Positions 10,482 to 59,276 of a DNA stretch of 64,000 bases are shown one piece after another. The DNA is from Chrysomallon squamiferum. Lineage: Eukaryota > Mollusca > Gastropoda > Neomphalida > Peltospiridae. The position numbers and the translations under genes were made by a program. The notes under the pieces are model-generated. The model was not told the DNA's origin and did no database searches. It saw nothing but the letters and a program-made list of their open reading frames with translations. The stretch covers positions 23,566,735 through 23,630,734 of the forward strand of contig CM022677.1 in NCBI GenBank assembly GCA_012295275.1, read 5' to 3'. Within the stretch, counting starts at the first letter, position 1. Every line of letters starts with the position of its first letter.

Positions 10482-10602
10482 TCAATTTTTCTCTGTTTCT
10501 GACATTGGATTGTCATAAGCCATAAAGTCTTTATCCTTCTTCTTTTTCTTTTTGTAGAGTGGATGTTCCATACTTGTTTCTTGCTCTTTCTTGTTCTTTC
10601 TC
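10482..10602 (-). CDS. G3 terminal exon: cytoplasmic tail and stop
   Basis: Acceptor ttttcag; the first base completes the codon split by the transmembrane exon, followed by 39 codons and TGA. The tail starts [20 protein letters not shown], has a lysine run, and ends with [18 protein letters not shown]1 shares the spacing and the DKxFMxYDNPxS core. Tyr-x-Asn is the general form of a Grb2-type SH2 site when phosphorylated (established motif; its use here is inference). The basic stretch just after the helix fits a cytoplasmic orientation. Confidence 0.75.
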
Positions 10603-58500: not shown

Positions 58501-59276
58501 TTTGTAAACGTAATTAACAACAAAGGAAAATTAGTCGAGTTATTTTAAGTCGAAGTTTCACATCACTGCGCAAGGACAAGGCGCTGATGAGCTTGGAGAG
58601 ATGCCAGCGTTTAGCAACAAGAGCTGTTCTGAAGCGAGAGTGGCAGCATAGTCTACGTTTATTCTGACAGTAACTCTGACATCAGTTTCTATGTCATTGT
58701 TTCAGTGTAGTAACTCTGATTTCAGTTTCTATGTCAGTGTTTCAGTGTAGTAACTCTGACATCAGTTTCTATGTCAGTGCTTCAGTGTAGTAACTCTGAC
58801 AACAGTTTCTATGTCAGTGTTTCAGTATAGTAACTCTGACACCAGTTTCTACTCTCTAGTCAGTATTTCAGTATTCTCCGAGTTTGCAGACAGTAACCGC
58901 ACGATCCGCTACATGGACGATTCAGTCTTCATTTCTAATAAATCACATGTGATTCAATTTGTATATTTCATGAGTACAAGGTCATTTACCTCGTTTTGAA
59001 GAAGCAGACATCACTGAGATGACCTGTTTATATCCTCTAGAGGTAGAACAGAGGTTCCTTGAACATTATTTGTCTTATTTGTAATTATTTAATGGCGAGT
59101 GGTTTGCTAATAACATTTGTGCAAATAATACGTAACAGGGGCAGACAAACATACGCTGAAATGTAGACAAACACCAATTACAACGTAGCAACTACTCAAC
59201 AAATCCTAATTAAGCTGTACAAACCAGACAAAATGATTACTTCTTGCACGAAAATTTGTATAATGACAGACTTCAT
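46514..59276 (-). CDS. Gene G2: micro-exon TSP1 single-pass membrane protein (whole span, spliced)
   Basis: Upstream paralogue of G3 on the same strand. Exons in transcript order: signal (59225-59276), micro 58281, TSP1 57793, micro 57431, TSP1 56487, micro 56091 and 55901, TSP1 55366, micro 55100 and 54671, TSP1 53977, 53085 and 52452, micro 52238, 51858, 50892 and 50518, transmembrane 46929, and a possible terminal exon at 46514. All ectodomain exons are phase 1-1. It alternates TSP1 domains with 11-residue linkers more regularly than G3 does and lacks the 2.1-kb amplification. It may therefore be closer to the ancestral layout (inference). The 3' end is the least certain part. Confidence 0.68.
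46779..46918. repeat. (AG)n microsatellite, about 140 bp
   Basis: One of the longest pure dinucleotide runs in the window, ending about 10 bases from the G2 transmembrane exon donor. Confidence 0.97.
46929..47007 (-). CDS. G2 transmembrane exon (79 nt)
   Basis: Acceptor ttatttcag, donor gtaagttt; enters in phase 1 and leaves in phase 2, as in G1 and G3. MGNYTRG is followed by the hydrophobic FCIACIALCAVGFIV and then YRIQ. The helix is cysteine-rich (three Cys), unlike the G1/G3 helices. NYT is a potential N-glycosylation site just outside the membrane. Confidence 0.7.
47293..47341. repeat. Poly(A) tract, about 49 bases
   Basis: Uninterrupted A run on the plus strand in a G2 intron. It may be the tail of a retroposed sequence, but no body was recognised. 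Confidence 0.9.
47342..50517. other. Large G2 intron with one open segment and a duplication
   Basis: Between the micro-exon at 50518 and the transmembrane exon. It includes a minus-strand open stretch (48080-48430) with cysteines (FCDSMQW, HKCKM, DTCLS) and no ATG; its identity is unknown. It also holds the 189-bp duplication and a GC-richer patch near 49670-49760 that may be a retroposon fragment. Confidence 0.4.
48841..49150. repeat. 189-bp tandem duplication carrying a (GT)n tract
   Basis: A sequence of about 120 bases starting TTATATTCATAG, with GGACGCAGTTCATATTTTC, occurs at 48841-48960 and 49030-49150. Each copy is preceded by a GT run. Confidence 0.9.
50518..50535 (-). CDS. G2 micro-exon with shifted acceptor (18 nt)
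   Basis: Paralogue of the 21-nt exon at 51858. The ancestral acceptor cag is cac here, but the next aag three bases on would serve, trimming one codon and keeping phase 1-1 (TKEMS). Donor gtaagt intact. Confidence 0.4.
50892..50909 (-). CDS. G2 micro-exon (18 nt)
   Basis: Exon CAGCAAGACGCCTTCCAG between tttctttag and gtaaat; encodes ARRLP in phase 1-1. Among the shortest exons in the window. Confidence 0.5.
51858..51878 (-). CDS. G2 micro-exon (21 nt)
   Basis: Between agtttcag and gtaagtat; encodes ETKEMS in phase 1-1. Confidence 0.5.
52238..52255 (-). CDS. G2 micro-exon (18 nt)
   Basis: Identical in sequence to the exon at 50892 (ARRLP), intact acceptor and donor. Confidence 0.5.
52452..52637 (-). 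CDS. G2 TSP1 domain exon (186 nt), most 3'
   Basis: Runs from VDGGWSDWVFNTTMC to SCEKKPCS with six cysteines. CSVPCGRG has Pro where the O-fucosylated Thr/Ser normally stands. Acceptor ctgacag, donor gtaacc, phase 1-1. It directly follows two other TSP1 exons without an intervening micro-exon that I could find. Confidence 0.9.
52990..53050. repeat. (AG)n microsatellite
   Basis: Follows two CA runs separated by a repeated TCTCTATCTCCATACACA. Confidence 0.95.
53085..53270 (-). CDS. G2 TSP1 domain exon (186 nt)
   Basis: VDGGWGAWLNNTKNC start: WSxW is WGAW here, keeping both Trp. NNTKN and NCS give potential N-glycosylation sequons near the start. CSVTCGIG present, six cysteines, ends FCQKQPCI. 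Acceptor gtacaaag, donor gtatta, phase 1-1. Confidence 0.88.
53977..54162 (-). CDS. G2 TSP1 domain exon (186 nt), EDGGW type
   Basis: Acceptor agtaacag then AG-GAT-GGT; begins EDGGWSQWRYEGTEC and ends KCVKEPCP before gtaaat. Six cysteines. CNIKCGEG lacks the O-fucosylation Thr/Ser, and GGIWCTG has Trp before the fourth Cys. It has no ATG of its own and is revealed only by splice borders. Confidence 0.88.
54671..54703 (-). CDS. G2 micro-exon (33 nt)
   Basis: Encodes KLVSLVGGNS between tgtttcag and gtaatg. Confidence 0.57.
55100..55132 (-). CDS. G2 micro-exon (33 nt)
   Basis: Encodes HSESLVRGNT between aatttcag and gtaaggac; shares the SLVxGN core with the exon at 54671. Confidence 0.57.
55366..55551 (-). 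CDS. G2 TSP1 domain exon (186 nt)
   Basis: Runs from VDGGWSDWVFTITKC to SCEKQPCP with six cysteines and CSVTCGTG. Acceptor attagcag, donor gtaatg, phase 1-1. Closest in the window to the exon at 53085 (shared VKER, RTCDSPKP). Confidence 0.9.
55901..55933 (-). CDS. G2 micro-exon (33 nt)
   Basis: Encodes MYKSPVADTE between agtttcag and gtaaggtt. Confidence 0.57.
56091..56123 (-). CDS. G2 micro-exon (33 nt)
   Basis: Encodes KTKQQIENIP between aatttcag and gtaagatc. The likely live counterpart of the dead AQAVENIAG relic in the G3 array. Confidence 0.57.
56487..56672 (-). CDS. G2 TSP1 domain exon (186 nt), EDGGW type
   Basis: Acceptor atcaacag, donor gtaatg, phase 1-1. Begins EDGGWSSWTSATTTC, ends YCDREPCP, six cysteines. 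CSVTCGLG fits the O-fucosylation consensus. Like the exon at 53977, it has Trp before the fourth Cys (GKWCSG). Confidence 0.88.
57431..57463 (-). CDS. G2 micro-exon (33 nt)
   Basis: Encodes KSESPVTDIS between cctttcag and gtaaggtc. Confidence 0.57.
57793..57966 (-). CDS. G2 TSP1 domain exon (174 nt), most 5'
   Basis: Begins VSGGWSSWLSENINC and ends FCEKEPCP. Six cysteines, but four codons shorter: the PxPxxGG loop is reduced to CDSPYGNTC. CTVTCGRG fits the O-fucosylation consensus, and NCT is a potential N-glycan site. Acceptor gttagtag, donor gtaatg, phase 1-1. The plus-strand exon at 6758 has the same length (174 nt). Confidence 0.88.
58281..58313 (-). CDS. G2 micro-exon (33 nt), first after the signal exon
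   Basis: Encodes KAKSLEGNKT between agtttcag and gttaga, a slightly weak donor. Confidence 0.52.
58669..58868. repeat. Minisatellite, 40-bp unit, five copies
   Basis: TAACTCTGACATCAGTTTCT-type units start at 58671, 58711, 58751, 58791 and 58831 with few substitutions, in the first intron of G2. Confidence 0.92.

What the first reader, a model, noticed from the sequence alone, without database searches (positions are those of the whole stretch)
10482..59276. A micro-exon TSP1 membrane-protein family: dozens of 18-54-nt, phase 1-1 linker exons between TSP1 exons
Seen: more than 50 short minus-strand segments flanked by ag and gt borders, all of length 3n and all with one base left over at the 3' end, interleaved with eleven phase 1-1 TSP1 exons, signal exons and transmembrane exons. 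Established: extracellular modules often use phase 1-1 exons, and schistosome micro-exon genes (MEGs) make variant secreted proteins from tiny symmetric exons. Inference: this family can yield a very large set of linker and domain combinations by exon skipping, a possible diversity system for surface recognition.
Basis: partly seen in the sequence, partly recalled or inferred. Interest (0 to 1): 0.92.

Follow-up and report, generated by a model that had tools for sequence, protein, structure and literature searches.

The report
Adhesion genes with amplified mini-exon linkers
A cluster of animal genes for cell-surface adhesion proteins spaces its adhesive domains with tiny exons that keep the reading frame, and in one gene about two dozen of these tiny exons are recent tandem copies, which could lengthen or vary the protein's stalk, although no RNA evidence yet shows that they are used.

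Summary
Eleven TSP1 exons lie on the minus strand (ten of 186 nt, one of 174 nt, phase 1-1), with about 50 short 3n, phase 1-1 AG...GT segments between them. They form two membrane-protein genes (59.3 to 46.5 kb; 43.2 to 10.5 kb) in a larger TSP1 cluster on contig C13 of a 404.6-Mb animal genome. Gene 2 with 41 microexons and five TSP1 exons reads as one 858-aa frame. The core element is an 11-aa, 33-nt linker exon shared by at least four genes; ten more stand in an independent array on the plus strand. Database relatives mostly space TSP1 by 2 aa; none of their 8-30-aa spacers has the linker motif. In gene 2 a 2.13-kb cassette was multiplied; its exon P is found only at this locus. Against a diversity system: inside that array the exons are no better conserved than introns, one of four per unit has lost its donor, and no RNA could be examined. 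Best reading: modular linker exons set domain spacing and stalk length; alternative splicing is possible, not shown.

The parts
59225..59276 (-). Gene 1 signal-peptide exon, coding part (MKSVIIQIFVQEVIILSG), ends in phase 1
58281..58313 (-). Gene 1 linker microexon 1, 33 nt (GKAKSLEGNKT)
57793..57966 (-). Gene 1 TSP1 exon 1, 174 nt
57431..57463 (-). Gene 1 linker microexon 2, 33 nt (GKSESPVTDIS)
56487..56672 (-). Gene 1 TSP1 exon 2, 186 nt
56091..56123 (-). Gene 1 linker microexon 3, 33 nt
55901..55933 (-). Gene 1 linker microexon 4, 33 nt
55366..55551 (-). Gene 1 TSP1 exon 3, 186 nt
55100..55132 (-). Gene 1 linker microexon 5, 33 nt
54671..54703 (-). Gene 1 linker microexon 6, 33 nt
53977..54162 (-). 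Gene 1 TSP1 exon 4, 186 nt
53085..53270 (-). Gene 1 TSP1 exon 5, 186 nt
52452..52637 (-). Gene 1 TSP1 exon 6, 186 nt
52238..52255 (-). Gene 1 microexon 7, 18 nt (second copy 50892-50909)
51858..51878 (-). Gene 1 microexon 8, 21 nt (second copy 50518-50538, altered acceptor)
46929..47007 (-). Gene 1 transmembrane exon
46490..46587 (-). Gene 1 last exon, cytoplasmic tail and stop
43150..43198 (-). Gene 2 signal-peptide exon, coding part ([17 protein letters not shown])
42398..42430 (-). Gene 2 microexon S0, 33 nt
41923..41976 (-). Gene 2 microexon, 54 nt
41054..41092 (-). Gene 2 microexon P0, 39 nt, apparent source of array exon P
40873..40914 (-). Decayed TSP1 exon, followed by a stop
40168..40353 (-). 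Gene 2 TSP1 exon 1, 186 nt
40048..40074 (-). Gene 2 microexon, 27 nt
37277..37309 (-). Gene 2 linker microexon, 33 nt ([11 protein letters not shown])
36778..36963 (-). Gene 2 TSP1 exon 2, 186 nt
21979..36664 (-). Main linker-microexon array: six full tandem 2.13-kb units and two partial ones; 7 copies each of S (30 nt), P (39 nt), N (33 nt, one of 24) with AG and GT, and K (33 nt) without donor
21754..21786 (-). Intact K linker microexon, 33 nt
20991..21023 (-). Intact N microexon, 33 nt
20396..20581 (-). Gene 2 TSP1 exon 3, 186 nt
20144..20176 (-). Intact K linker microexon
19750..19782 (-). Intact N microexon
19076..19261 (-). Gene 2 TSP1 exon 4, 186 nt
16169..19016 (-). Second stretch of the array (about 1.4 units; one S, P and N each)
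16100..16132 (-). Intact K linker microexon
15266..15298 (-). Intact N microexon
14285..14317 (-). Intact K linker microexon
13439..13471 (-). Intact N microexon
12823..13008 (-). Gene 2 TSP1 exon 5, 186 nt
12495..12524 (-). K microexon, 30 nt
12144..12176 (-). N microexon, 33 nt
11912..11935 (-). Microexon, 24 nt
11380..11424 (-). Microexon, 45 nt, weak donor; without splicing it runs into a stop (possible secreted end)
10912..10999 (-). Gene 2 transmembrane exon
10482..10602 (-). Gene 2 last exon, cytoplasmic tail and stop
1..6300 (-). Array units of a neighbouring paralogue (gene 3), whose 3' end lies below the window; begins at an assembly gap
63187..63274 (-). TM exon of the upstream paralogue (gene 0); its tail exon is 62650-62770

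Best explanation
This is a cluster of type I membrane proteins whose outer part is a string of TSP1 domains. In genes 1 and 2 each TSP1 is one phase 1-1 exon, nearly always of 186 nt. Between them sit phase 1-1 linker microexons, above all a family of 33 nt (11 aa, Cys-free). Because every intron between signal exon and TM exon is in phase 1, any linker or TSP1 exon can be duplicated or left out without harming the frame. Linker exons have been amplified at least twice: as a 2.13-kb cassette (S, P, N) in gene 2, and as ten ~500-bp copies in a plus-strand neighbour. Most likely function: linkers set the spacing and reach of the adhesive TSP1 domains, and the array adds a Ser/Gly/Pro/Asn-rich stalk of 34-aa repeats (seven in a row between TSP1 exons 2 and 3, one more between 4 and 5). 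Shown: gene anatomy, exon phase, family relationship, amplification. Inferred: that the array exons are spliced in, and the spacer role.
For: Gene 1 reads as 522 aa and gene 2 as 589 aa (minimal) or 858 aa (41 microexons), each one frame from signal peptide to tail; the microexons had been picked as open in phase 1, so the unselected test is, where 36 of 37 strict 3n loci are open. 3n excess on the minus strand only, repeated around the plus-strand paralogue at 23530-23552 kb: 13 of 15 plus-strand loci 3n, all 13 open. The 33-nt linker recurs in gene 1, gene 2 and other genes of the cluster at 58% mean identity (19 copies; picked as 33 nt, a 30-nt K copy was left out). Second array: 9 aligned units, 0 indels in the exon against 3.6 expected from the introns; the regular spacing leaves no room for a missed copy. 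Indels in exons: by my own late count 4 of 4 are 3n, against 2 of 17 complex-sequence intron indels of the gene-2 array, Fisher P=0.0025; 14 of 30 in low-complexity sequence and 14 of 50 in the second array's introns are 3n too. TSP1 exons show dN/dS mostly below 1 and match thrombospondin-1 structures. Inter-TSP1 spacing: gene 1 13, 24, 24, 2, 2; gene 2 minimal 22, 24, 24, 46; in 198 listed relatives the mode is 2 (888 of 1538) and no spacer of 8-30 aa has the linker motif.
Against: No transcript was seen. Inside the gene-2 array (8 full units), diversity (pi) is S 0.060, P 0.035, N 0.019 against 0.016 in complex intron sequence and 0.022 in all of it, so there is no sign of constraint; donor-less exon K shows none at all, as do 23% of intron windows of its size. 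Pooled pN/pS of 19 linkers is 0.98 and codon positions diverge alike; N exons give pN 0.200, pS 0.160. Two linker copies near the second array are broken. Linkers are not general in the cluster: the minus-strand stretch 23633-23658 kb has 13 TSP1 hits but 0 of 10 scanned loci are 3n. The cluster holds assembly gaps, one beside array units. The splice-site matrix used recalled frequencies.
Confidence: 0.62

Rival explanations
1. Passive array: the single-copy and old linker exons (gene 1, K and N copies beside TSP1 exons) are real, but the 2.13-kb array is an intronic segmental duplication whose S, P and N exons are skipped or spliced at low level and do nothing.
For: No excess conservation of S, P, N inside the array, the highest variation being in S; the array units share a lost K donor and a TSP1 exon reduced to its first bases, so the founder probably had both losses. 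One decayed TSP1 and two donor-less N copies show exon decay in the gene.
Against: The array copies of S, P and N keep AG and GT and an open phase-1 frame, two N copies with an exact 9-nt in-frame deletion included; the units are so young (92-98% identical to one reference unit) that this is weak evidence.
Confidence: 0.25
2. Diversity system: cells or individuals use different subsets of linker and TSP1 exons, giving a large set of surface proteins for recognition.
For: Phase 1-1 symmetry of linker and TSP1 exons, recurrent linker amplification, tail-exon paralogues at eight places over 240 kb, linkers evolving at pN/pS near 1, a possible alternative secreted end.
Against: No RNA, no population data; symmetry is expected for shuffled extracellular modules in general (recalled); I saw nothing that points to mutually exclusive or regulated splicing, but ran no search for it.
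Confidence: 0.1
3. Assembly artefact: the array copy number, or gene 3, is a scaffolding or haplotype error.
For: N gaps of 200, 2500 and 5000 bases in the cluster, one of 200 at window 6301-6500 next to array units; gene 3 is 94% identical to the 3' part of gene 2 over 5.3 kb.
Against: Units differ from the reference unit by 2-8% with unit-specific indels; gene 3 has a diverged TM exon and a frameshifted tail; gene 1 and the second array do not depend on it.
Confidence: 0.03

Closest known systems
Schistosome micro-exon genes (MEGs); PMC10526429 (introduction, first part of the results and passages read), PMC5825161 (two passages seen)
   Same: Signal peptide, chains of short exons mostly of 3n length between long introns, clustered duplicated genes, secreted or membrane-anchored products.
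   Different: MEGs are described as about 80% short symmetric exons of 6-36 bp with verified protein variants; here microexons make up 15% in gene 1 and, in the maximal gene 2, 36% counting those of 36 nt or less (54% counting all); the protein is built on TSP1 domains, and no splicing data exist.
TSP1-repeat proteins annotated coadhesin-like, SCO-spondin-like, hemicentin-like (molluscs, cnidarians and others)
   Same: Same domain; 26-39% identity to gene 1 and gene 2 models among the hits listed.
   Different: Their TSP1 domains follow each other with a 2-aa spacer in 888 of 1538 cases, and none of their 8-30-aa spacers shows the 11-aa linker motif; gene 2 TM plus tail found no relative.
Elastin and titin PEVK exons (recalled; one search found nothing to the point)
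   Same: Chains of small symmetric exons duplicated in blocks, giving repetitive elastic or spacer segments.
   Different: Matrix or muscle proteins; not alternating with TSP1 exons.
Fibrillar collagen exon duplication; PMC4838654 (passages seen)
   Same: Repetitive protein evolved through exon duplication with symmetric exons.
   Different: Collagen helix, no TSP1 exons.

Membership tests
TSP1 domain family (Pfam PF00090) | Score over the curated cut-off, six cysteines, W-x-x-W | tested here: met
   4 of 12 exons were given to Pfam: 27.5 and 24.3 bits pass the cut-off 21.6; the 174-nt exon (18.6) and the plus-strand one (13.6) do not. Ten aligned 186-nt exons share six invariant Cys and both Trp. 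Best solved relatives are thrombospondin-1.
Schistosome MEG | About 80% of the coding region in symmetric exons of 6-36 bp | tested here: not met
   15% in gene 1; 36% (54% counting all microexons) in the maximal gene 2; definition from PMC5825161.
Schistosome MEG | Signal peptide; secreted or membrane-anchored | tested here: met
   Signal and TM exons in genes 1 and 2; judged by eye, no predictor was run.
Schistosome MEG | Protein variants by alternative splicing | not testable with these tools
   No RNA data.
Schistosome MEG | Conserved hydrophobic motif after the signal peptide | not tested
   Motif described in PMC10526429.
Splicing-diversity receptors of the Dscam type (recalled) | Mutually exclusive choice within clusters of alternative exons | not testable with these tools
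   Needs cDNA; no competing RNA structures were searched.
Coadhesin-like TSP1 proteins | Contiguous TSP1 repeats with short spacers (my reading of the 198 listed relatives) | tested here: not met
   Gene 1 spacers 13, 24, 24, 2, 2; gene 2 minimal 22, 24, 24, 46; mode of relatives 2.

The most novel reading that the evidence does not exclude
The cluster is a surface-protein diversity system in which the variable part is not the binding domain but the spacer: a pool of interchangeable 9-13-aa linker exons is spliced in different numbers and orders between TSP1 domains, and the exon array also varies in copy number between individuals, so that reach and spacing of adhesive domains become an individual or cell-specific trait.
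Probability: 0.1. Interest if true: 0.93.

Novelty: new variant of a known kind. Interest (0 to 1): 0.6.

Why it matters
Exon shuffling is usually discussed for folded domains. Here the spacer between the domains is itself a symmetric exon with its own birth-and-death history: mostly 11-aa steps, amplified independently in two genes of one cluster. That gives a natural series of proteins with the same domains at graded spacing, on which the effect of linker length on adhesion can be tested, and a clear case to ask whether arrays of near-identical microexons can be spliced faithfully. If splicing varies, it would be a diversity system outside the known immune receptors.

Tried and rejected
Constraint inside the gene-2 array was expected and not found. 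Pooled codon tests on K and N exons gave no clear purifying selection. Relatives of gene 2 TM plus tail: 223 candidates, none scored E<=10. Gene 1 TM plus tail gave no blastp match to those of genes 0 and 2 and was not searched on its own. The species could not be named: the listed database hits spread over molluscs, cnidarians and others with no close relative, and eight other TSP1 loci of the genome did not single out a phylum; a search for a cytochrome oxidase gene did not complete. Blastn of the 5' regions of genes 1 and 2 gave one match, the signal exon, so a shared promoter that I thought I saw by eye is not claimed. Literature: in the listings of ten searches (three of them list 10-12 of 76-99 papers) I saw no paper on TSP1 genes with microexon linkers; the library lacks most subscription journals. 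Other TSP1 loci: 2 further 10-kb stretches of C13 and 6 short loci scanned at one cut-off showed no 33-nt candidate. The plus-strand neighbour was not modelled completely (no signal or TM exon sought there). The NANP-like peptide of exon N resembles the repeat of the malaria circumsporozoite protein (recalled); I take it as chance.
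Full report
WHERE. The window is C13:23566735-23630734 of a 404,604,130-base genome in 22 contigs. GC is 26-33%.

THE OBSERVATION. Eleven TSP1 exons on the minus strand score 91-113 bits with a profile seeded from eight of them; a twelfth, on the plus strand, scores 37. Ten of the eleven are exactly 186 nt with AG and GT borders in phase 1-1; one is 174 nt. A scan that used splice-site strength and length only, not the reading frame, found 43 minus-strand loci at the strictest cut-off, 37 of length 3n (36 open in phase 1), against 4 of 9 on the plus strand. 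Collapsed by similarity it is 14 of 20 families against 4 of 9 (binomial P for 14 of 20 about 0.001, my arithmetic). At looser cut-offs the family excess is weaker: 19 of 43 and 18 of 34, against 6 of 25 and 4 of 14. The excess is real, but much of the raw number comes from copying.

TWO COMPLETE GENES. Gene 1: signal exon, six TSP1 exons, six 33-nt linkers, an 18-nt and a 21-nt exon (second copies of both lie in a duplicated stretch), TM exon, tail; 522 aa in one frame. Gene 2: signal exon, five TSP1 exons, TM exon, tail; 589 aa with a minimal set of microexons and 858 aa with all 41 intact ones, one open frame in both cases, splice dinucleotides AG and GT throughout. Since the microexons were picked as open in phase 1, the open frame is partly built in; one search is the unbiased test. 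The introns from signal exon to TM exon are in phase 1; the one between TM and tail is not. Gene 2 TM plus tail is related to that of gene 0, which enters the window at its upper end (44% identity); gene 1 TM plus tail gave no match to either. A genome search with the gene 2 tail places its relatives with E<0.1 on C13 only, nine hits at eight places, 23.48-23.72 Mb, all on the minus strand (two weaker hits at E 0.9 and 3.5 lie elsewhere). Within 260 kb around the window there are 96 TSP1 hits, on both strands (at least one exon is split into two hits).

THE LINKER EXON. The 33-nt exon recurs with consensus G-K-[SK]-K-S-L-V-[AG]-[GD]-x-A. I collected 22 copies by eye from the scans, all chosen as 33 nt and open, from gene 1, gene 2 and its duplicate gene 3, two further minus-strand loci and a plus-strand gene; all have AG before and GT after them. 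Copies of 30 nt exist in genes 2 and 3 and were left out, so the constant length is partly by choice. A weight matrix of fixed length from 19 of them finds eight more with AG and GT or GC (scores 31-64) and two broken ones (23 and 25), against simulated maxima of 0.2, 0.4, 14.4 and 0.2 in four runs; N and donor-less K copies score 15-25. Spacing between TSP1 domains in gene 1 is 13, 24, 24, 2, 2 aa, that is 2+11n; in the minimal gene 2 it is 22, 24, 24, 46, where 22 includes a 9-aa linker. Among 1538 spacings in the 198 listed database relatives 888 are 2 aa, and no spacer of 8-30 aa holds the linker motif. So the linker exons look like insertions, mostly in 11-aa steps, into an ordinary chain of TSP1 domains. 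Linkers are not found everywhere in the cluster: in the minus-strand stretch 23633-23658 kb, with 13 TSP1 hits, 0 of 10 scanned loci are 3n, and in 23663-23728 kb 8 of 19 are. A DNA search of the genome with two linker contexts found only C13:23.53-23.63 Mb (7 matches; that search misses distant copies).

THE ARRAYS. The gene-2 array is a 2.13-kb unit; full units are 92.5-98.4% identical to the one used as reference. Exon P with its surroundings occurs at 13 places in the genome, 12 array copies and the single-copy exon P0, all within C13:23.566-23.608 Mb; 12 of the 13 lie in the window. Each unit carries S (30 nt), P (39 nt), N (33 nt, twice 24 nt by an exact 9-nt deletion) with AG and GT, and K without a donor in 11 of 11 array copies in the window. 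The first bases of a TSP1 exon run straight into the intron before K (sequence), so the founder seems to have been a stretch of gene 2 that lost a TSP1 exon and the K donor and was then multiplied. If all are used, the gene 2 protein gains eight copies of [34 protein letters not shown] or close variants, seven in a row and one after TSP1 exon 4. The second array, in the plus-strand neighbour, has ten 33-nt linkers at about 500-bp spacing between two TSP1 exons; it is older (exon divergence 0.275, intron 0.324). None of the ten has a stop (chance 0.03 under unconstrained change); nine aligned units show no indel in the exon (3.6 expected); one donor reads GC instead of GT, and four acceptors end in GAG.

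SELECTION. TSP1 exons (ten of 186 nt, pairs within a gene): dN/dS 0.20 to 0.67 for 18 of 20 pairs, 0.91 and 1.00 for two. Four K exons of gene 2: pN 0.140, pS 0.253; seven N exons, two of them from the array: 0.200 and 0.160. Nineteen divergent linkers pooled: ratio 0.98, with out-of-frame controls 0.80 and 0.84. Ten linkers of the second array: 0.71. Inside the gene-2 array (8 full units) S, P and N are more variable than complex intron sequence; S lies at the 97th percentile of intron windows, P at the 84th, N at the 65th. By hand count about eight of nine differences among S, P and N copies change the protein (sequences), not clearly different from neutral. The picture is kept length and phase, loose sequence: what one expects of a flexible spacer, and equally compatible with young copies that are not yet, or no longer, used.

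HOW IT MOST LIKELY WORKS. Shown: phase, frame, family, duplication. Inferred: TSP1 domains act as adhesive modules (established for thrombospondin-1 and others, recalled; sequence match); each linker adds a short Cys-free, Ser/Gly/Pro/Asn-rich spacer (composition); more linkers mean wider spacing and a longer stalk between membrane and outer TSP1 domains. A weak donor at 11380 followed by an in-frame stop suggests an optional secreted end. Alternative inclusion is possible at each phase-1 junction, but nothing here shows it.

COMPARISON AND NOVELTY. The exon style is that of schistosome MEGs, but the share of short exons is too low and the body of the protein is TSP1. Growth of a repetitive protein by exon duplication is known for collagen (PMC4838654, passages) and, from memory, elastin and titin. 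What I did not see described, in the listings of ten searches of an open-access library, is a spacer exon family that alternates with TSP1 exons and is amplified on its own. I rate it a new variant of a known kind.

Noticed in passing
C13:23532951-23537508 (+ strand; locus L023): Ten tandem 33-nt linker microexons between two TSP1 exons, an array independent of the one in the window.
   Followed up: yes
whole genome G000: The codon pattern for the CS[VI]TCG-type motif occurs 544 times against 21 for the reversed pattern, so TSP1 exons number probably several hundred. A TSP1 query from this window gave 1393 first-look candidates; of the 150 scored about 109, by my count, lie on C13, which the choice of query favours.
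   Followed up: partly
C13:19.234-19.247 Mb and C7:3.623-3.633 Mb: Other tandem runs of TSP1 exons at short regular spacing with nearly equal scores; not aligned.
   Followed up: no
C13:23518324-23518928 (- strand; locus L021): Three tandem 24-nt microexons (EEAFNNS, EEAFNNS, EEAANNS), relatives of the 24-nt exon at window 11912-11935: a third small amplification.
   Followed up: no
window 6736-6960, + strand: A divergent TSP1 exon on the opposite strand, next to the 200-base assembly gap at 6301-6500.
   Followed up: no
window 11357-11424, - strand: The 45-nt microexon has a weak donor; unspliced it continues to an in-frame TAA, a possible alternative last exon of a secreted form.
   Followed up: partly
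C13:23560516-23566734 (L025, L026): Gene 3, 94% identical to the 3' part of gene 2 over 5.3 kb, has a diverged TM exon and a tail exon shifted in frame with an early stop.
   Followed up: partly
window 50518-52255, - strand: A duplication of about 1.35 kb carries second copies of the 18-nt and 21-nt exons of gene 1; the second 21-nt copy has a changed acceptor.
   Followed up: no
window 2114-2416, - strand, and the same place in other array units: A stretch with a long open piece (...[28 protein letters not shown]...) that may be a decayed mobile element; this sample gave no Pfam match.
   Followed up: no
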